64,000 bases of DNA from Planctomyces sp. (GTDB lineage Bacteria; Planctomycetota; Planctomycetia; Planctomycetales; Planctomycetaceae), in contig JAEUIH010000027.1 in NCBI GenBank assembly GCA_016795105.1, positions 1 through 64,000 on the forward strand. Reading direction: 5' to 3'. Under the pieces are notes generated by a model. It made no database searches. It saw only the letters and a program-made list of their open reading frames with translations, and was not told where the DNA came from. Positions within the stretch are counted from its first letter, which is position 1; each line of letters starts with the position of its first letter. Positions 76 through 9,963 of this stretch are shown piece after piece. A program made the translations under genes and the position numbers.

Positions 76-435
76 ATGTATTCGCGACTTCGAGAACGTA
101 TCAGAAGGCGAACGCTGGCTTTCTCGCTGTTGATCTTGTGCATCGTGACCTACTTCAGCGCATTCCTGTACTTGCGGCGGGGGGCGAATTCGTCTGGTTA
201 TCCACAGATGTATATCTTCAGCACGGAAGCGATCGAGAATGATCGGCTAGTGACCATTTTCACACCGATCATTTGGCTTTCCGGCGGACGAATGACTTCT
301 TCCGACCATGAAGTGTCGATGGCAGACGAACTTCCCCGCAATGGGCGTCCTGTGTATCTCCGCAGCAATCATCGTATGTGGTCAAGAATCGGCAGTCACT
401 TTGATACTCTGCAGTCAGAGATACCGATTCACTAG
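76..435 (+). CDS. Small membrane-anchored hypothetical protein
   Basis: A 119-residue ORF. A basic N-terminus (about residues 4-13, rich in arginine) is followed by one hydrophobic segment at about residues 14-34, which predicts a single membrane anchor with a C-terminal domain outside the cytoplasm. I recognise no family. It lies just before the first RHS tip, and its start is only about 75 bases from the window edge, so the gene upstream is not visible. It could be an immunity protein for an RHS toxin lying outside the window, but that is inference from position only. There is no strong ribosome-binding site. Confidence 0.45.
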   Translation: MYSRLRERIRRRTLAFSLLILCIVTYFSAFLYLRRGANSSGYPQMYIFSTEAIENDRLVTIFTPIIWLSGGRMTSSDHEVSMADELPRNGRPVYLRSNHRMWSRIGSHFDTLQSEIPIH

Positions 436-524: not shown

Positions 525-1052
525 ATGCCTGTCAGTGCCGACAATCCACAGACGGGGACCGCCAACGACGGCGATCTGCCGGGCCTGAGTGGCACAGGCA
601 ACGAATACTCGCCGCAACGCAGCTACACCGGACGCGAGCCGGATGCCGTCACCGGCCTGCTGTACTACGATGCACGCTGGTATGACCCCGGTGTGGCACA
701 GTTCATCAGCGAAGACCCCATTGGCTTCGCGGCCGGGGACGCCAACCTGCGGAGATACGTTGGCAACTCCATGCCCAATGCGGTGGATCCGACGGGGTTG
801 GAGGAGAAGGAGATGGAGTTGGTGGTCTTTGGTCGACCGAACGTCGGCGGTCCACGAGTGCAGTATCAAGGGGAAATCATGTTCCCTCAGGTTGCTCGCC
901 GACTTGGAATCCCGGGCTCAGATGATTCGGACACGTATTCACGCTGGGACAGCAAAGAATTTGAAGCGGGTGTTTGGCTCGTGAAGCCGTATTACGCACG
1001 CGATACTAACGGCAAAGAGTACATTCGTTACTACAGTGCCATCACTCGCTAG
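525..1052 (+). CDS. Orphan RHS-repeat core tip with short C-terminal extension
   Basis: A 175-residue ORF. Residues 26-93 carry the RHS-associated core, with the typical LLYYDARWYDP, ISEDPIGF and DPTGL motifs. In the family this core ends a shell-forming RHS protein of over 1000 residues and marks the junction to a variable toxin domain. Here nearly all of the shell is missing, so this is a displaced tip rather than a full gene. Residues 94-175 are a non-core extension. The ORF ends at a TAG (1050-1052), but the same frame stays open for another 690 bases, into a nucleotidyltransferase-like domain, so the stop may be a disabling nonsense change. The bases from about 530 are close to those at 7429, in the third tip. 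It may be a silent donor cassette for recombination into a full RHS gene elsewhere. Confidence 0.75.
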   Translation: MPVSADNPQTGTANDGDLPGLSGTGNEYSPQRSYTGREPDAVTGLLYYDARWYDPGVAQFISEDPIGFAAGDANLRRYVGNSMPNAVDPTGLEEKEMELVVFGRPNVGGPRVQYQGEIMFPQVARRLGIPGSDDSDTYSRWDSKEFEAGVWLVKPYYARDTNGKEYIRYYSAITR

Positions 1053-1154: not shown

Positions 1155-1742
1155 ATGGAGACGCTTGCTTTTGGGATCAGAGAGAATCTGACGCCGGGAC
1201 AAGTAGAGACATTCGCAACAGGTAGCATTCTGCCCCATGCAAAAGAGGAACTAAAACGCCAGTGGACGGACCCGATGCTTGTGTATCGCGGCTTAATCGC
1301 GTGTGTTCTTGCGTCACCTAGACCTCGTCTCGGAGATCTTCGTCCTGCAGAAATTCGTGTAATCCAGAGTCGCGTCAACGCCGCCGGACGCCCACTTGAA
1401 GTAGTGGGCTCTGCGGCGCGAGGAACTCGCCGAGGGGTCGGCACGAATCTTCACATCGGTAAGGAAAAGGGGGTAACACGAAGTGATATCGATTATGCGA
1501 TTCCTCCGTCAACCAGTGAGTTCTTTGATTCTGTAGGTCCTTTACCCGATCGCATTGAATTCGCGCCAACGATTCACTCGCCAATGGAAGGGCCATCAAT
1601 TCGATTCGCTCCACATTCGCGTCCCATTTTTATTCCGAAAATCGGGGACGAACCCCTGTATGGACCAGCACCCGTCATAGAATCGCTTGTGCCGCTCGCG
1701 GTTCCCCCCGCGATTCGTCCGAATACTGACCCAAGGGAGTAA
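1155..1742 (+). CDS. Putative nucleotidyltransferase-fold toxin domain of an RHS cassette
   Basis: A 195-residue ORF in the same reading frame as the RHS tip ending at 1052. No stop lies between 1053 and 1154, so the domain could once have been fused to that tip. Residues 85-90 read GSAARG and residues 110-114 read SDIDY. This pair matches the glycine-serine helix and the first metal-binding Asp-x-Asp of nucleotidyltransferase-fold enzymes, which transfer a nucleotidyl group to protein or RNA. Such domains are known among polymorphic toxin tips. The C-terminal 60 residues are rich in proline. The start at 1155 is simply the first ATG. The stretch before it (34 codons) also looks coding, so the true protein may begin earlier or be an inactive fragment. 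A metallophosphoesterase begins six bases downstream. Confidence 0.55.
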   Translation: METLAFGIRENLTPGQVETFATGSILPHAKEELKRQWTDPMLVYRGLIACVLASPRPRLGDLRPAEIRVIQSRVNAAGRPLEVVGSAARGTRRGVGTNLHIGKEKGVTRSDIDYAIPPSTSEFFDSVGPLPDRIEFAPTIHSPMEGPSIRFAPHSRPIFIPKIGDEPLYGPAPVIESLVPLAVPPAIRPNTDPRE

Positions 1743-1748
1743 TCCTGA

Positions 1749-2285
1749 ATGCGCAACTCAACGCTGCAAAAAATTGGTATCGTCTCTGACACTCACGGAG
1801 TGCTGCATTCGAAACTCATTGAGTCTCTTGAGGGAGTCGACTGGATTATTCACGCCGGGGATGTCGGCGACGTCTCAATTCTGGAGGCTCTCCGCGCTAT
1901 TGCGCCGGTATCCGCAGTACGTGGCAACCACGATCGTGGCATGGAATTCGCTGACCTTCCAGAGCATGATTTCATTTCGATTGGCGAAGACTCCTATGCA
2001 TACGTGCTTCACGATCTGAAGGAAATTCAGTTTGATCCGTGGGCTGGGAGGTGCGAACTCGTGGTGAGCGGACACACCCATATTCCGTCATGTTTCGTGG
2101 ATCGCGGTGTTATTTTTCTAAATCCCGGGAGTGCTGGAATTCGACGAGAAAGTGAACACATGTTGACATGTGCGATTCTCGTCAGAGTTGAACCAACATG
2201 GATGGTGCGATTTGTTGATCTGGAAAACAGTGAGAAAAGTGAATGCAATTCAATATCAGTGCAGCGAAGTAAAAAAGATACTTAG
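1749..2285 (+). CDS. YfcE/MJ0936-type metallophosphoesterase
   Basis: A 178-residue calcineurin-like phosphoesterase. All signature motifs are visible: SDTHG (residues 13-17, with D14 and H16), HAGD (35-38), GNHDR (59-63), H88, SGHTH (107-111) and NPGS (125-128). They supply the residues for a two-metal centre that hydrolyses phosphomonoesters or phosphodiesters. The length is usual for small YfcE-like enzymes (about 160-185 residues). It starts six bases after the nucleotidyltransferase-like ORF and probably shares its transcript. In an RHS toxin cassette this is the immunity-gene position. An enzyme that removes a nucleotidyl group added by the toxin would fit, but this is inference. It could equally be an unrelated housekeeping phosphoesterase. 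Confidence 0.85.
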   Translation: MRNSTLQKIGIVSDTHGVLHSKLIESLEGVDWIIHAGDVGDVSILEALRAIAPVSAVRGNHDRGMEFADLPEHDFISIGEDSYAYVLHDLKEIQFDPWAGRCELVVSGHTHIPSCFVDRGVIFLNPGSAGIRRESEHMLTCAILVRVEPTWMVRFVDLENSEKSECNSISVQRSKKDT

Positions 2286-2354: not shown

Positions 2355-3557
2355 ATGGCCAGCAGCGGGAACAGCACTGCCGCGCTGGTGAATCATCTCG
2401 AATACAACGCATTCGGGGCGATCACGTCACAGACCAATTCCGCGTACCAGCCCCTGCAGACCTACACCGGCCAGATTCTGGATTCTGCGACCGGGCTGCT
2501 GTACTACGACGCACGCTGGTATGACCCCGGTGTGGCACAGTTCGTGAGCGAAGACCCGATCGGCTTCGCAGCCGGGGACGCCAACCTGCGACGATACGTC
2601 GGCAACTCCATGCCCAATGCGGTGGATCCGACGGGGTTGGACTTCGTAGACGTCGACGACCAAATCGCGATTTGGGTAGAAGAGGATTCGCTTGGTCGCA
2701 ATGGACAGTCACATGACTTAGGGCATGTTGAGGGCGATACGATTACTCTCCGGCCTCAATATGGTGGCGGTCAAATCTCGCTGTCCAGGCTAAAGCAATT
2801 TGTTGATGCGGGCCTCAGACACCAATCACTATACATGCATGTCTCCACGCTGACGGGACTCAGTGACGACGACAAACAGTTCTCCATAAGGTTTGCAATC
2901 TCCGAGGTGTACTTCCAGACGAAAAACGCGACCTATCGAGCTGGAGACCAGTGTGACGAAGAAGGAAATATCACGGCCTCCGCAGGAGCGAACGGACCAC
3001 TTGCCGCAATACTCATCATGCACATGATTCGGCAGGTTGCCATTGATCTGGCCATTGAATTTGCAGGGGGCACAGCGATTACCGCGATCGCCAAGGGCGG
3101 TAAACTGTTCCTTCGGGCGGGAGGAGAGACGATAGAACTCACCGTCGAGCAGGTTGCGAAAAAACTTGGAAAGAATGCTGATGAAGTTGACCTTGCCGCA
3201 ATCGCTAGGCAACTTGATGGGAAGAAGTTGGATGATGTACTTGCTGCAAACAGGAAGTTGCCACGATTTGAAGGTCCAAAGCCGAACTACTCCGTTAATC
3301 CGGCCCATGTACCCGGGACCTTACGACATGGAAAAACACCGCTACCAGTCGATGCTGACGAAGTATTTCGTCACGCGGTCCCCGACGATCCGGTGAACCC
3401 AAGGAATTGGTACGGCCGAAATGCGAACGGCCAGATTTACCGATTCTCTGGAGGAAATGATGGCACTGCACACTTTAGCGGAATCGATGGCGTTGGAGAT
3501 GGGATACGAAATATTACGAAATATGCACGCCAACGATTGGAGGAAATGTTGCGATGA
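2355..3557 (+). CDS. Orphan RHS tip with C-terminal toxin-like domain
   Basis: A 400-residue ORF. Residues 1-95 are RHS core (YTGQ, LLYYDARWYDP, SEDPIGF, VDPTGL), almost identical in DNA to the tip at 525. Residues 96-305 form a variable linker with a hydrophobic, alanine- and glycine-rich stretch at about 212-254, a common feature of pretoxin regions that might serve membrane passage. Residues 308-400 are a compact basic end domain with NPAH (315-318), GKTPLP (326-331), NWYGR (351-355) and TAHF (371-374). It has the look of a small secreted nuclease or RNase toxin, but I cannot name the family. The stop overlaps the start of an Imm42-like gene by four bases, the usual toxin-immunity arrangement. 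The start is uncertain: the frame remains open upstream (for example V-R-K-D-A-F). Confidence 0.75.
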   Translation: MASSGNSTAALVNHLEYNAFGAITSQTNSAYQPLQTYTGQILDSATGLLYYDARWYDPGVAQFVSEDPIGFAAGDANLRRYVGNSMPNAVDPTGLDFVDVDDQIAIWVEEDSLGRNGQSHDLGHVEGDTITLRPQYGGGQISLSRLKQFVDAGLRHQSLYMHVSTLTGLSDDDKQFSIRFAISEVYFQTKNATYRAGDQCDEEGNITASAGANGPLAAILIMHMIRQVAIDLAIEFAGGTAITAIAKGGKLFLRAGGETIELTVEQVAKKLGKNADEVDLAAIARQLDGKKLDDVLAANRKLPRFEGPKPNYSVNPAHVPGTLRHGKTPLPVDADEVFRHAVPDDPVNPRNWYGRNANGQIYRFSGGNDGTAHFSGIDGVGDGIRNITKYARQRLEEMLR

Positions 3558-4075
3558 TCTTTGGAAAGACCGATAGTTTTGCAATCGAAGTCGGTGAACT
3601 CGAATCGTATCTCAATTTTTCCGGGATATACGTTCAGTTCCGGTTTTGGATCGGTAAAGTCCCAGTGGGAGATTGGAACGACCGGATATCGTTGCAGGCA
3701 AGTATTGAAAACGCTTGTACGATTCTTGAGACAGAAGCGATGCGACAGCTTTCTCCGTTCGCACAGAATCATGCTTCTGATGTGTTTCAGGCAGTGTATG
3801 ATGCCTTCTACTCGTACGATTACACGAAAGCCCCAGTTGTTATTCCGAACCTTCGGGATCAATTCCATCTGGACGAGATTGGCATGGGAGCTATTCAAGA
3901 CAAGTATGGACTAATTCTCGTTGCGACTTCAAACAGTTTGGAGAGAGTCATTGCCAAAGATTTGAGGCAAGAATTGCTTATTGCAGACGTGTCGGTGCCG
4001 GTGGGGTTTGTTGAGTCGGTACTGCGCGAGTTCATTGAGTGGGGAAGAACACTCTTGCGTGCAGCACGAGGTTGA
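3554..4075 (+). CDS. Imm42-like immunity protein
   Basis: A 173-residue cytoplasmic protein starting with MIFG and FAIEV, then FRFWIGKVPVGDW. This opening is what I recall of the Imm42 family: a short strand with FAIE, followed by a WI-G-x-x-x-GD motif. Such proteins bind and neutralise the toxin made by the gene directly upstream. The ATG overlaps the stop of the RHS tip at 3557 by four bases (ATGA), so the two are translationally coupled. No signal peptide or membrane segment is seen, which fits a cytosolic antidote. The family name rests on recall of the N-terminal motif only; the role as immunity protein is supported independently by position. Confidence 0.7.
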   Translation: MIFGKTDSFAIEVGELESYLNFSGIYVQFRFWIGKVPVGDWNDRISLQASIENACTILETEAMRQLSPFAQNHASDVFQAVYDAFYSYDYTKAPVVIPNLRDQFHLDEIGMGAIQDKYGLILVATSNSLERVIAKDLRQELLIADVSVPVGFVESVLREFIEWGRTLLRAARG

Positions 4076-4823: not shown

Positions 4824-4860
4824 AACGCCGGGAGTGCTTCTCCTCGGCGTTTTTTGTTTT
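4824..4860 (+). terminator. Probable intrinsic terminator
   Basis: The left arm AACGCCGGGAG and the right arm CTCCTCGGCGTT pair around a 5-base loop, with a single bulge or mismatch, and run into TTTTTTGTTTT. It ends transcription from the left, before the DUF433 remnant. It also rules out the GTG at 4834 as a plausible start for that remnant. Confidence 0.65.
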
Positions 4861-4887
4861 CCGCCCTTTGTTGCAAATCTCCTTGTT

Positions 4888-5124
4888 ATGGGAGGCAAGC
4901 CCTGCATTCGGGGGACGCGAGTGACAGTGGGAACGATTGTCGGGCTGATTGCGAGCGGGAGCAGTACAGAAGAGATTCTTCGTGACTATCCGTACATAGA
5001 AGCCGATAATATTCAGGCTTCACTGTCTTATGCGGCATGGCGATCTGAAGAAGTGGACGTCGGTTCCACGCAAAGACCCCTCTGGCCCTGTGCCAGAGGT
5101 GAATCGGTTTGGAAACTAGAATAG
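4888..5124 (+). pseudogene. Truncated DUF433 gene, 3' end replaced by a dispersed repeat
   Basis: From the ATG at 4888, about 60 residues match the DUF433 antitoxin-like family: GGKPCIRGTRVTV, a helix-turn-helix-like middle, then the I-QASLSYAA end. Family members begin about 13 residues earlier, with an I-x-x-D-P-x-I strand that is missing here. The preceding bases come from a terminator and do not restore it. The C-terminal tail, with RPLWPCARGE, is translated from the dispersed hairpin repeat beginning near 5064, so the original 3' end has been overwritten. The PIN-like toxin that normally follows DUF433 genes is absent. I read it as a decayed toxin-antitoxin module. Confidence 0.6.
5064..5118 (+). 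repeat. Hairpin-containing dispersed repeat, partial copy
   Basis: This copy contains arms CCTCTGGC (5079-5086) and GCCAGAGG (5092-5099) with loop CCTGT, then TGAATCGGTTTGGAAACT. It belongs to a family also found at about 6508, 11828, 20688 and 21752. Confidence 0.75.
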
Positions 5125-5186
5125 CGATCCAAAAGGCGATTGACACCGACGTCTATGCACAGGCGCTACCCTGATGCAGCCAGATG

Positions 5187-5232
5187 GATTCGATTGGCAT
5201 GTACGGAAATATGCCGTACAATTAATCGAATC
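5187..5232 (+). promoter_or_regulatory. Nested inverted repeat, probable operator of the DUF1778/GNAT module
   Basis: Two nested perfect inverted repeats: an outer pair GATTCGATT (5187-5195) and AATCGAATC (5224-5232), and an inner pair TGTACGG (5200-5206) and CCGTACA (5214-5220), with a 7-base centre. The repeat ends one base before the AAGGAG ribosome-binding site (5233-5238) of the antitoxin gene. DUF1778-type antitoxins autoregulate by binding palindromes in their own promoters, so an operator is the likely role. An RNA hairpin occluding translation is an alternative. Confidence 0.7.
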
Positions 5233-5244
5233 AAGGAGCAAGCG

Positions 5245-5535
5245 ATGGCAACTGCAAACAGCACCTCAAAGTCGGCTCGAATCGAAACTCGAGTTTCTCA
5301 AGAGCAGAAAGCTCTAATCGAGCGGGCTGCCGCCTTCAGTGGTCGGACCGTTTCCGAATTTGTGCTTGCTCATGTTGAAGTCGCTGCAAAGAAGGTGATC
5401 GACGAGCATGAGAAGCTGCACTTAGACCAGGCGCAAAGCAAAATACTGGTCGATGCTTTATTGTCTCCCAGGAAGCCAAACAAGATATTGAAGCTTGCTA
5501 TGGAGGACTATCGCAAGCAGGTCGAAAGCCGATGA
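5245..5535 (+). CDS. DUF1778 (TacA-like) antitoxin
   Basis: From the ATG at 5245, preceded by AAGGAG seven bases upstream, this encodes a 96-residue protein. It contains a ribbon-helix-helix-like N-terminus (RIETRVSQEQKALIERAA, then GRTVSEFV) typical of DUF1778. The C-terminal half is the toxin-wrapping segment, with LHLDQAQSK and an LLSPRKPN motif, although family members usually have a longer F-x-x-A-L-x-x-PP-x-PN. It represses its own operon and blocks the GNAT toxin. The toxin start overlaps its stop by four bases. A longer reading from 5140 exists but has no ribosome-binding site and would run through the operator. Confidence 0.88.
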   Translation: MATANSTSKSARIETRVSQEQKALIERAAAFSGRTVSEFVLAHVEVAAKKVIDEHEKLHLDQAQSKILVDALLSPRKPNKILKLAMEDYRKQVESR

Positions 5536-6029
5536 AGGGCCACGTTTGTGAGCCGCTCGGCAATCAACACGATCGAACGCAATTTGATTGTGGCGTGTCA
5601 GTTCTCAACGACTACCTGGCCAAGTATGCGAAACAAGATGTAAAACGAAAGGCGGCGGCAGTTTTTGTTGTGCTCAAGCGCGAGGAGCCGAAGCGAGTCA
5701 TCGGTTTTTATACTCTGTGCGCGACGTCGGTAGCCCTTTCTGATTTACCGGAAGAGGTCACAAGAAGGCTTCCGCGATATCCCGAAATTCCCGCAATCCT
5801 GGCAGGAAGATTGGCTCGAGACGTGGATTATCCAGGCGTCGGCTCGCTACTTTTGTCCGATGCAATCACACGTTGCGTCCGAGTGGCAATTGAGATCGCG
5901 GCAAGCCTGATCGTTGTGGATTCCAAAGGTGAAGCCGCAACGCATTTTTATGAGAAGTTCGGGTTTATCTCGCTACCGAAATTACCTGACCGGATGTTTC
6001 TTCCAATGCAGACGGCAGAGAAACTTTAA
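5532..6029 (+). CDS. GNAT-family acetyltransferase toxin (TacT/AtaT-like)
   Basis: A 165-residue GNAT protein coupled to the DUF1778 antitoxin by an ATGA overlap. Toxins of this group acetylate the aminoacyl end of charged tRNAs and stop translation. Visible features are the F-x-CGVSVLNDYL opening typical of the group (residues 18-28), GFYTLCATSVAL (58-69), the LARDVDYPGVG acetyl-CoA loop (94-104) and the C-terminal HFYEKFGF (137-144), which includes the conserved tyrosine. The acetyl-CoA loop is shorter than the common Q/R-G-x-G-x-G/A form, and PGVG replaces it. This may be a family variant rather than damage. The length (about 160-175) is normal, so the module looks intact. Confidence 0.88.
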   Translation: MKGHVCEPLGNQHDRTQFDCGVSVLNDYLAKYAKQDVKRKAAAVFVVLKREEPKRVIGFYTLCATSVALSDLPEEVTRRLPRYPEIPAILAGRLARDVDYPGVGSLLLSDAITRCVRVAIEIAASLIVVDSKGEAATHFYEKFGFISLPKLPDRMFLPMQTAEKL

Positions 6030-6237: not shown

Positions 6238-6366
6238 AATCTGTCCAGATACGTCGACAACTCCGTGCCCAATGGGGTGGATCCGACGGGGTTGATTGAT
6301 CCAGCCATATCGCTGCCTTGGCAGCCCTGTGCCAACGCACGTTCGTCAGCACCAGAACCGCGTTGA
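6238..6366 (+). pseudogene. RHS core relic
   Basis: In one frame the stretch reads L-S-R-Y-V-D-N-S-V-P-N-G-V-D-P-T-G-L, followed by a short tail to a TGA at 6366. This is the end of the RHS core found intact at 2587-2640, with four substitutions. No RHS sequence precedes it and no toxin domain follows, so it is a decayed junction fragment. The bases from 6030 to 6237 show no gene. Confidence 0.65.
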
Positions 6367-6646: not shown

Positions 6647-6955
6647 TCAAACAAGGCGATTCAGCCAGTGCAGCGGACGCCGGCGAGAATGCGCTAAGGC
6701 AACGACCACGATCTCATCGTCGCGACAGAGGTATACGACTGCGTAGGGAAACCGATGCAGCATTTGCCTCCGAATCTCATGAGGACCGGAGTAGTATTCC
6801 AGCCGTGGGGCACTCAGAGGATTCCGTTGAATCACGTCGAACGCAGAATTCAATTCAGAGATAAATTCATCGCCAAGTCCAGACTGTCGGTCTTCATACC
6901 AGATCGCAGCAGCGACAGCCTCGCCCTGCGCCGCTGGCAGTACTCGAAAATTCAC
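6647..6955 (-). CDS. ParE/RelE-family toxin
   Basis: A 102-residue protein of the ParE/RelE fold. It has an AAIWYEDRQSGLGDEF helix, typical of ParE toxins, a central IQRNPLSAPR, then the basic strand IRRQMLHRFPYAVVYL and the end strand EIVVVALAHSRRRP. ParE toxins poison DNA gyrase; RelE-type relatives cut mRNA on ribosomes. The sequence fits the ParE side better, but activity is not certain from sequence. Its start overlaps the stop of the antitoxin gene at 6952-6955 by four bases, giving the antitoxin-first order usual for these modules. It lies on the minus strand between RHS debris and the third RHS tip. Confidence 0.87.
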   Translation of the reverse strand: MNFRVLPAAQGEAVAAAIWYEDRQSGLGDEFISELNSAFDVIQRNPLSAPRLEYYSGPHEIRRQMLHRFPYAVVYLCRDDEIVVVALAHSRRRPLHWLNRLV

Positions 6956-7212
6956 GGTGTTGCCTGACGGTGACGGTGCTCGGCAACTGCCCGTTTCAGA
7001 TGTTCCAGTGATTTATCAAAATCGACTGTAGCTGTTTCCCCCTGATCATAGGCAGCGATTCGTCGGTTGATCTCGTTAGACCAGATTTCCCCAATCTCCG
7101 AAGACGAAAAATGCCCTGCGGAAATTTGCTGCTCCAGCATATCCGCCAGAAAGGCCTGATCCGCCGGTGGCAAGGCCAGCGCCTGTGCGAGAATGTCATC
7201 TCTTGTCGTCAT
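6952..7212 (-). CDS. Addiction-module antitoxin (TIGR02574-like)
   Basis: An 86-residue acidic protein. The N-terminal half has ALALPPADQAFLADML, close to the family pattern L-P-x-x-E/D-R-x-x-L-x-x-x-L. The second half has the I-G-E-I-W-S-N-E-I-N-R-R-I-x-x-Y-D-x-G motif, normally W-x-x-E-I-x-x-R-x-x-x-x-x-x-G-x-x-x. These small proteins neutralise ParE-type toxins encoded immediately downstream. No DNA-binding domain is obvious, so autoregulation may rely on the complex or be absent. It starts about 100 bases from the divergent third RHS tip. Confidence 0.85.
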   Translation of the reverse strand: MTTRDDILAQALALPPADQAFLADMLEQQISAGHFSSSEIGEIWSNEINRRIAAYDQGETATVDFDKSLEHLKRAVAEHRHRQATP

Positions 7213-7315: not shown

Positions 7316-8458
7316 GTGTTCGACCACCAGAACACGGTCCGCGACGTGGCTATCTTCGATGGTACTCCGGGGGATCAGGCGGACGTCGTCAACCATCTGA
7401 CGTACAACTCAGCAGGCAGCGTGGTGAGTGCCGACAATCCACAGACCGGGACCGCCAACGAAGGCGATCTGCCGGGCCTAAGTGTCACAGGCAACGAATA
7501 CTCGCCGCAACGCAGCTACACCGGACGCGAGCCGGATGCCGTCACCAGGCTGATCTACTACCGCGCCCGCTGGTACGACCCTCGCCTCGGCAGATTCATC
7601 AGCGAAGACCCGATCGGCTTCGCAGCCGAGGACGCCAACCTGCGGAGATACGTCGGTAACTCCATGCCCAATTCGGTGGATCCGACGGGGTTGGATGAAT
7701 TCGGCTTTGAAGGCCAACACGACCTTGAGGAGTGGCTCAAAACGCACCCAGACCATCCATGGCGACCTTATGTGGAGCAAACACTCAAAAACATGCAACA
7801 TCCATGGCAATTGGAACCTTCCCCAAGTTTCACTGATCAATTCAAATGGGGGAATTTTAGAGATCTTTCATATCAGGGTTGGTTTGAGCGACGTTATCCT
7901 GGCTGGAATAAGGAAGCACAGGATCGGGCAAGAAAATACGTTCAATGGCAACTACTGAACTTTCAGCTTTCTGGAATCGAATCAGGTGAGTCGAACCAAA
8001 TCGCCTTAGTGATACCAGACCGCGACAAAGAAAATCACTGGTGGAAGACCTTGATGCCTGCACTTCAATCTCAAGGCGAAAACAACGGAGAAACACTATA
8101 TGGTGATTTGCCACAGTCAGCACGTGAAGCAAACTGCGATGGGCCAGGAGCATTCTGGTTCGAAGTAGTGAATACTCGAGCCCAGCGAGTGGGAAATGAA
8201 CTTCATTGGTCAGCGGACGTCATTATCCGAGATGCTTTGGGGGTTTCTCCGCAAGATCGAGATGAAGATGAGGGAGCTGTCGAACTGGCTTTATTCTTCG
8301 GCGCCCTTGAAGACAAAATCGTGACTCACGCAGCATTCTCCATTAAAGGAAAACAGAAGGTCATCCCTGGCCTTGATGACTTTCGAGGATTCGCACTCAT
8401 CGGCTATGAGAGTCACATCATGCGAATCCCTCGGCCAGACTTCATTAGAAAAGAATGA
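7316..8458 (+). CDS. Orphan RHS tip with unrecognised C-terminal domain
   Basis: A 380-residue ORF beginning at a GTG. Residues 1-30 retain an earlier RHS element (DHQNTVRDV and NHLTYN), and 64-126 are the core: YTGREPDAV, ARWYDPRLGRFISEDPIGF and VDPTGL. Residues 127-380 are a long unique domain rich in tryptophan and aromatic residues, with HDLEEWL, PSFTDQFKWG, WFERRYPGW, ENHWWKT and GPGAFWFEV. I do not recognise it. There is no hydrophobic segment, and acidic stretches lie near 310. By the logic of RHS cassettes it would be the toxic effector, but it might be any displaced C-terminal domain. The upstream frame is open for some codons without an ATG, so the start is uncertain. A small membrane protein follows after three bases. 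Confidence 0.7.
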   Translation: MFDHQNTVRDVAIFDGTPGDQADVVNHLTYNSAGSVVSADNPQTGTANEGDLPGLSVTGNEYSPQRSYTGREPDAVTRLIYYRARWYDPRLGRFISEDPIGFAAEDANLRRYVGNSMPNSVDPTGLDEFGFEGQHDLEEWLKTHPDHPWRPYVEQTLKNMQHPWQLEPSPSFTDQFKWGNFRDLSYQGWFERRYPGWNKEAQDRARKYVQWQLLNFQLSGIESGESNQIALVIPDRDKENHWWKTLMPALQSQGENNGETLYGDLPQSAREANCDGPGAFWFEVVNTRAQRVGNELHWSADVIIRDALGVSPQDRDEDEGAVELALFFGALEDKIVTHAAFSIKGKQKVIPGLDDFRGFALIGYESHIMRIPRPDFIRKE

Positions 8459-9267: not shown

Positions 9268-9567
9268 ATGGCGACGAAAAACATCAGCCTGACGGAACAC
9301 TACGCTGACTTGGTAGATTCACTGGTCAACTCAGGCAAGTACAAGAACGCGAGCGAGGTGGTTCGTGAAGGGTTGCGCTTGCTCGAGCAAAGAACCGCTG
9401 AAGACGATCGTCGACTTGAGTTGCTGAAGCATTTGGCGGCAGAAGGATTTCAGCAACTCGATCAGGGCGAGGGAGTTCGGCTTGGAACTGAAAATCAAAT
9501 TGCGGCTCACATTTCTAAACTAGGTCGTCAAGCCGCTAAACGCTCGAAGAACGGAAAGTCTGGTTGA
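9268..9567 (+). CDS. ParD-family antitoxin
   Basis: A 99-residue protein with an N-terminal ribbon-helix-helix: NISLTEHYADLVDSLVNSG, then YKNASEVVREGLRLLEQR. This is the standard ParD (CC2985-like) pattern, in which the strand binds DNA and the paired helices dimerise. The C-terminal tail, about residues 50-99, would wrap the toxin; it is a little longer than usual (ParD proteins are about 80-95 residues). GAGG precedes the ATG. It is followed by the toxin gene after three bases and preceded by a perfect palindrome that probably mediates autoregulation. Confidence 0.88.
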   Translation: MATKNISLTEHYADLVDSLVNSGKYKNASEVVREGLRLLEQRTAEDDRRLELLKHLAAEGFQQLDQGEGVRLGTENQIAAHISKLGRQAAKRSKNGKSG

Positions 9568-9570
9568 TCC

Positions 9571-9963
9571 ATGCCGCGTGTAGTACTTGCCAATGCGGCG
9601 AGCGAAGACATCGTCAGCATCCTGGAATGGAGTCATGAGAACTTTGGCGAGCTCGCGAGATTGCGTTACGAAGCATTGTTGACTAAGGCGATCATCGATA
9701 TCGCAGAGTCGCCTGATCGCCCAGGATGTGTTGCTCGAGAAGAGCTGGCAGCTGGGGCTCGCACCTATCACCTCTGGCACAGTCGCAATCGTGTCGGGAA
9801 GACGCCTGGTGTCGTTCGCAATCCTCGACACTTCCTGTTATTCCGACCTGGAGCTCAGAGCGACATTGAAATCGGCCGCGTGCTGCATGACAGTATGGAC
9901 CTGGCTTCAAATCTCCCCTCAGGCGACATGGTACAATCCAGCGACGAAGAGTCGCATGAGTGA
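9571..9963 (+). CDS. ParE-family toxin
   Basis: A 130-residue ParE/RelE-fold toxin: an N-terminal strand, then the helix SEDIVSILEWSHENFGELARLRYEALL, the middle IAESPDRPGCVAREEL and the C-terminal strand of the fold (RNPRHFLLFRPGAQSDIEIGRVLHDSMDL). The closing I-E-I-G-R-V-L-H-D-S-M-D pattern is typical of this group. It is about 30 residues longer than most ParE proteins, through a central basic loop and a C-terminal tail rich in Ser, Asp and Glu. It starts three bases after parD on the same transcript. The presumed target is DNA gyrase. Confidence 0.86.
   Translation: MPRVVLANAASEDIVSILEWSHENFGELARLRYEALLTKAIIDIAESPDRPGCVAREELAAGARTYHLWHSRNRVGKTPGVVRNPRHFLLFRPGAQSDIEIGRVLHDSMDLASNLPSGDMVQSSDEESHE

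What the first reader, a model, noticed from the sequence alone, without database searches (positions are those of the whole stretch)
1155..2285. Possible nucleotidyltransferase toxin with a phosphodiesterase antidote
The GSAARG plus SDIDY motifs point to a nucleotidyltransferase, and the metallophosphoesterase six bases downstream has a complete metal site. If the toxin attaches a nucleotide to RNA or protein, the neighbour could remove it, which would be an enzymatic immunity rather than a binding inhibitor. I know of no described pair of exactly this type, but I could not search.
Basis: inference. Interest (0 to 1): 0.6.

Follow-up and report, generated by a model that had tools for sequence, protein, structure and literature searches.

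The report
Orphan RHS toxin beside a phosphoesterase
A planctomycete carries a displaced bacterial-weapon cassette whose toxin belongs to a small, apparently unnamed toxin family; in every relative found the toxin is followed by its own different immunity gene, so the phosphoesterase next to it here is at best a one-off replacement antidote and not a conserved one.

Summary
Both ORFs are real and lie as described. The first (1155-1742; frame open from 1053) is a divergent member of a rare polymorphic-toxin domain family, found in 5 other genomes' worth of loci (6 loci). It shares V-V-G-S...R...T...K...T/N-R-S-D-I-D; a profile built without it finds it at 2.7e-9. Relatives sit at the C-terminus of an RHS protein, of PT-HINT pretoxins and of other large proteins. 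Pfam and NCBIfam have no model. The nucleotidyltransferase (NTase) label rests on the motif and a moderate AlphaFold model; HMM and Foldseek tests were not significant, and no third catalytic acid is conserved.

The second ORF is a YfcE-type metallophosphoesterase (Metallophos_2, 4.9e-31) with all metal ligands, in the immunity slot of the cassette. The pair is not conserved: 6/6 relative toxins are followed within about 50 bp by a different, unnamed ~165-aa immunity-like family, none by a phosphoesterase. About 34 phosphoesterase homologues had no RHS tip or toxin nearby. The closest, in the same genus (about 51% identical), is an ordinary chromosomal gene. The window toxin is also cut from its RHS tip by an in-frame TAG.

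Verdict: a displaced RHS toxin module of a new family. Phosphoesterase immunity is possible but unsupported beyond position (about 0.25).

The parts
525..1052 (+). Orphan RHS tip (Rhs_assc_core) plus about 85-residue tail, ending in TAG 1050-1052
   Evidence: TIGR03696 9.3e-17; copies of the RHS tip DNA at 2462-2641, 6247-6294 (fragment) and 7453-7698 of the window and on contigs C8, C330, C34
1053..1154 (+). In-frame open stretch between the RHS-tip stop and the first ATG of the toxin ORF; codon use is coding-like, so RHS tip and toxin look like one frame interrupted by a stop
   Evidence: stop-to-stop 1053-1742, same frame as 525-1052; codon score (weak, 34 codons)
1155..1742 (+). Divergent member of an unnamed NTase-like polymorphic-toxin family
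   Evidence: relatives L005, L006, L007, L008, L028, L031; profile without the window E=2.7e-9; no Pfam or NCBIfam match
1332..1640 (+). Recognisable toxin domain: ...EVVGSAARGTRRGVGTNLHIGKEKGVTRSDIDYAI...EGPSIRFAP; strong similarity covers the first half only
1735..1739 (+). GGGAG, Shine-Dalgarno-like, 9 nt before the phosphoesterase ATG
   Evidence: sequence
1749..2285 (+). YfcE/COG0622-type metallophosphoesterase with all metal ligands, in the immunity-gene slot of the cassette
   Evidence: nearest relative is a chromosomal gene of the same genus, G003, about 51% identical
2355..3557 (+). Next cassette: orphan RHS tip with another C-terminal toxin region
   Evidence: TIGR03696 1.6e-19
3554..4075 (+). 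Immunity protein 42 (Imm42), partner of the next cassette
   Evidence: PF15593 6.9e-7, above the curated cut-off

Best explanation
The locus is a displaced ('orphan') RHS toxin-immunity cassette in an array of such cassettes. Its toxin domain is a divergent member of a small, apparently unnamed polymorphic-toxin family with an NTase-like active-site motif. In relatives the domain is delivered as the C-terminus of RHS, PT-HINT or other large proteins and is neutralised by a dedicated ~165-aa immunity-like protein of an equally unnamed family (inferred from strict adjacency). The likely mode of killing, inferred only, is transfer of a nucleotidyl group to a cytoplasmic target by a two-aspartate (SDID) metal site. 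In the window copy the link to the RHS tip is broken by a stop codon, the C-terminal half of the domain has drifted, and the usual immunity gene is gone. The slot is filled by a YfcE-type phosphoesterase that clusters with a same-genus chromosomal gene. The phosphoesterase is most likely a recruited or incidental gene, not the family's conserved antidote.
For: Toxin family and delivery: L008 has RHS core plus domain, L028 and L031 have HINT plus domain. Family match. One immunity-like family follows all 6 relatives (L005, L006, L007, L008, L028, L031; 5 genomes) directly, from a 14-bp overlap to a gap of about 42 bp, and those proteins are 32-47% identical to the L031 one. No phosphoesterase follows any of them. 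The own genome carries one diverged member of that immunity family on contig C337 (E=1.2e-4) in a polyimmunity cluster with Imm21 and SUKH genes; the window itself has none. Phosphoesterase: 34 homologous loci, none with an RHS tip, the toxin domain or the immunity family within the roughly 1.5-kb flanks held; the nearest gene sits beside a glycosyltransferase with an S4-like ribosomal protein gene nearby and groups with the window copy at 100/97 with similar branch lengths, 0.81 and 0.73. Array context.
Against: The phosphoesterase is the only complete ORF between this toxin and the next RHS tip, has intact metal ligands and a good ribosome-binding site overlapping the toxin's end, and is the only copy in the genome. 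That is what a functioning partner would look like. With six relatives the family sample is small, and immunity genes are known to be swapped. The NTase identity has no statistically significant fold or profile match.
Confidence: 0.65

Rival explanations
1. Enzymatic immunity: the toxin attaches a nucleotide to RNA or protein (or makes a small nucleotide), and the YfcE-type phosphodiesterase removes or hydrolyses it. The usual immunity gene was replaced by this enzyme in the window lineage.
For: Position in the immunity slot, 6 bp spacing, GGGAG overlapping the toxin end, complete metal site, only copy in the genome.
Against: 0 of 6 relative toxins have it; 0 of 34 phosphoesterase homologues lie beside such a toxin. 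Its branch is hardly longer than that of the chromosomal gene. The toxin ORF is cut off from its delivery protein and part of its domain has drifted.
Confidence: 0.25
2. Decayed module: neither gene works as a toxin-antidote pair now. The toxin is a remnant after the stop codon and the phosphoesterase is a passenger brought in by recombination.
For: In-frame TAG between RHS tip and toxin, no good start signal at 1155, drifted C-terminal half, lost immunity gene; cassette array rich in fragments and toxin-antitoxin genes.
Against: The toxin frame stays open for 229 codons, the key motif is intact and the phosphoesterase is intact. Displaced cassettes can be reactivated by recombination with a full RHS gene (general knowledge).
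Confidence: 0.35
3. The domain is not an NTase but another phosphotransfer or nucleotide-binding toxin with a DxD site, for example of the class II nucleotide cyclase type, and the phosphoesterase would act on a diffusible nucleotide.
For: No conserved third acid; Foldseek lists class II cyclases (edema factor, ExoY) over 23-24 columns at 0.7-1.0 A rmsd beside NTases, all below significance.
Against: E-values 8-10 and probability 0.05-0.08 are noise level; the GS...SDID order and the element order of the model fit an NTase better.
Confidence: 0.1

Closest known systems
RHS / PT-HINT polymorphic toxin systems (Zhang et al. 2012, PMC3482391)
   Same: Variable C-terminal toxin domain behind an RHS core or PT-HINT, immunity gene directly downstream, displaced orphan cassettes, polyimmunity loci.
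   Different: In the passages of that survey found by term search, the nucleotidyltransferase-fold toxins are RelA/SpoT-like; neither this domain nor its immunity family has a Pfam or NCBIfam model.
MenT nucleotidyltransferase toxins of MenAT systems (PMC10435456, PMC11541572, PMC11375011)
   Same: Proposed chemistry: NTase toxin acting on a cytoplasmic target.
   Different: MenAT are intracellular toxin-antitoxin pairs regulated by MenA antitoxins (abstracts); no NTase family model was hit by the window toxin, and its target is unknown.
DarT/DarG and Tre1/Tri1 ADP-ribosylation pairs (PMC9967889 for DarTG; Tre1/Tri1 from general knowledge)
   Different: Different chemistry and folds; those pairs recur across genomes, this one was found once.
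YfcE/MJ0936/VPS29-type metallophosphoesterases
   Same: The second ORF is a sequence member.
   Different: Only the genomic position, behind an RHS toxin, is unusual.

Membership tests
RHS polymorphic toxin cassette | RHS-associated core tip directly upstream | tested here: met
   TIGR03696 9.3e-17 in 525-1052
RHS polymorphic toxin cassette | Toxin domain continuous with the RHS tip in one ORF | tested here: not met
   Same frame, but TAG at 1050-1052 separates them; therefore described as a displaced, interrupted module
RHS polymorphic toxin cassette | Immunity gene of a recognised family immediately downstream | tested here: not met
   The downstream gene is a YfcE-type phosphoesterase; the partner family of the relatives is absent from the window
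Pol-beta-type nucleotidyltransferase | hG[GS] ... [DE]h[DE]h motif | tested here: met
   G38 S39 and S62 D63 I64 D65 invariant in 7 members, with a longer, variable loop between them
Pol-beta-type nucleotidyltransferase | Third catalytic carboxylate on a later strand | tested here: not met
   No conserved acid after the DxD; the last strand carries an invariant R
Pol-beta-type nucleotidyltransferase | Fold | tested here: inconclusive
   Model of a relative pLDDT 73.8, pTM 0.70, compatible element order; TUTase and HI0073 among the top Foldseek hits but E>2; hhalign to GlnD negative; model of the window ORF itself useless, pLDDT 35.6
YfcE-type metallophosphoesterase | Profile match and metal ligands | tested here: met
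   PF12850 4.9e-31, TIGR00040 1.5e-22 above cut-off; the expected D, H, D, N, H, H, H ligands are present
Enzymatic immunity pair (toxin plus reversing enzyme) | Conserved co-occurrence of the two genes | tested here: not met
   0/6 relative toxins and 0/34 phosphoesterase homologues
Enzymatic immunity pair (toxin plus reversing enzyme) | Catalytic reversal of the toxin's modification | not testable with these tools
   Needs biochemistry

The most novel reading that the evidence does not exclude
In this lineage an RHS toxin of the new family has exchanged its usual immunity protein for a chromosomally derived YfcE-type phosphodiesterase that reverses the toxin's nucleotidyl modification (or destroys its nucleotide product): an enzymatic antidote recruited from a housekeeping gene.
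Probability: 0.2. Interest if true: 0.65.

Novelty: new member of a known kind. Interest (0 to 1): 0.33.

Why it matters
It adds an apparently unnamed toxin family with a matching unnamed immunity family to the polymorphic-toxin catalogue; neither has a Pfam or NCBIfam model. It also shows how adjacency at a single displaced cassette can suggest a pair that comparative data do not support. If the phosphoesterase does rescue, it would be a natural example of a housekeeping enzyme recruited as an antidote.

Tried and rejected
Conserved toxin-phosphoesterase pair: rejected on 6/6 relatives with another partner and 34 phosphoesterase loci without toxin. Accelerated evolution of the phosphoesterase as a sign of immunity function: not seen, branch 0.81 against 0.73 for the chromosomal gene. 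A second phosphoesterase in the own genome: none. Fold of the window toxin: model too poor, pLDDT 35.6, not used. Fold of a relative: usable model, but no significant PDB or viral match. NTase homology by profile: PDB profile search and hhalign to E. coli GlnD negative. Relatives of the toxin on phages, plasmids and viral contigs: none; two weak matches of the immunity family on Streptomyces plasmids, with transposase genes as neighbours. G091 and G005 toxin hits judged spurious (the G091 match lies in a frame among overlapping long GC-rich ORFs, the G005 match in an LmbE-like gene). The RHS tail 795-1049 has no plasmid match; its nature is unknown. Literature searches for a metallophosphoesterase immunity protein behind RHS, or with deAMPylation, returned no paper.

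Full report
1. What is there. ORF 1155-1742 carries GSAARG and SDIDY; ORF 1749-2285 starts six bases further on. The second is a YfcE/COG0622 metallophosphoesterase (PF12850 4.9e-31; TIGR00040 1.5e-22; solved relatives MJ0936, YfcE, VPS29) and keeps every expected metal ligand. A GGGAG lies 9 nt before its ATG, inside the end of the first ORF. Upstream, an RHS tip (525-1052; TIGR03696 9.3e-17) ends in TAG; the same frame then stays open from 1053 to 1742, with coding-like codon use also in 1053-1154 (weak). Downstream, another RHS tip with toxin region (2355-3557) and Imm42 (3554-4075) follow, and further RHS-tip copies lie at about 6250 and 7450 and on other contigs. The contig starts at window base 1. 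This is an array of displaced RHS cassettes.

2. The toxin family. No Pfam or NCBIfam model matches. Searches of whole genomes found a relative in the same bacterial family (G014, confirmed in reverse at 1.1e-5), then three more in GTDB contigs besides that one (L006 Planctomycetota, L007 Myxococcota, L008 Pirellula) and two in G942. A profile made without the window finds the window ORF at 2.7e-9 while the best of 2000 shuffles is 0.45. The shared core is VVGSxA...R...T...K...(T/N)RSDID; the strong match covers this half only, and the second half (AHP helix, GR...PPYIRF) is drifted in the window copy. The family is rare: 1 of 392 genomes sampled across the phylum, the window genome itself; three real carriers (window genome, G014, G942) among 170 in the family, a fourth hit (G005) being judged spurious; and 1 of 379 in the phylum of L007.

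3. Why it is a toxin. L008 is fused to an RHS core. L028 carries a PT-HINT pretoxin domain (PF07591 2.7e-7), and L031 has the same sequence pattern before its toxin domain (not scanned separately). L006 and L007 are fused to other large proteins. All six relatives are followed directly by one conserved ~165-aa family (from a 14-bp overlap to a gap of about 42 bp) that has no Pfam or NCBIfam model. This is the standard layout of a toxin with its immunity protein (established knowledge; Zhang et al. 2012, PMC3482391); the immunity function itself is inferred.

4. Is it a nucleotidyltransferase? The invariant positions include exactly the G-S and S-D-I-D expected of one. The model of L007's domain (pLDDT 73.8, pTM 0.70) shows helix 17-29, strand 34-38 ending at GS, a low-confidence loop 41-60, strand 64-68 with DxD, helix 75-83 and strand 112-114. 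Foldseek puts a TUTase first and HI0073 fourth, but with E above 2; the viral library gives nothing significant; hhalign to GlnD gives nothing. No third acid is conserved. I rate NTase-like chemistry at about 0.6. The model of the window ORF was too poor to use.

5. The phosphoesterase. It is the only copy in its genome. Homologues occur in 7 of 149 relatives and 29 of 392 planctomycetes sampled (counts include the window genome; thresholds 1e-8 and 1e-10). In 34 loci scanned, mostly with about 1.5 kb on each side, no RHS tip, toxin domain or immunity family was found. The nearest homologue, same genus, lies between a glycosyltransferase and an S4-like ribosomal protein gene and forms a clade with the window copy at 100/97 with like branch lengths. 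Plasmid homologues that I opened lie beside Ku/NUDIX/ligase, dnaX or ImuA genes.

6. Where is the usual immunity gene? Absent from the window. The genome has one diverged member on contig C337 (E 1.2e-4) within a polyimmunity cluster with Imm21 and SUKH genes. Whether it protects against this toxin is unknown.

7. Conclusion. At this one locus the phosphoesterase occupies the immunity slot, so recruitment as an enzymatic antidote cannot be excluded (0.2-0.25), but a displaced and partly decayed module with an incidental or recruited gene is the better reading. Shown: gene content, homology, adjacency counts. Inferred: toxin chemistry, immunity function, history of the locus.

Noticed in passing
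window 5140-6029 and 4834-5124: TacA/TacT-like pair (DUF1778-like plus GNAT acetyltransferase-like) and a DUF433-like ORF lie between RHS cassettes; further RelE/ParE-like pairs at 6647-7212 and 9268-9963 (judged by eye from translations).
   Followed up: no
window 2355-4075: Second orphan RHS cassette with an unnamed toxin region and an Imm42 immunity gene.
   Followed up: partly
window 525-1052: The ~85-residue tail after the RHS tip (795-1049) has no recognised domain and no plasmid match; its relation to the toxin frame after the stop is unexplained.
   Followed up: partly
window 76-435: Small membrane-protein-like ORF with a look-alike near an RHS-tip fragment on contig C358 (L042:1533-2027); possibly an immunity gene.
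   Followed up: no
L043:13437-14494: Another PT-HINT toxin with a TGSFRTG...SDFDIDLWI motif and its own downstream gene: a second NTase-like toxin family in G942 without a Pfam name for the toxin part.
   Followed up: partly
L044:2426-11545 (contig C337 of the window genome): Polyimmunity cluster with Imm21, two SUKH genes and a diverged member of the new immunity family.
   Followed up: partly
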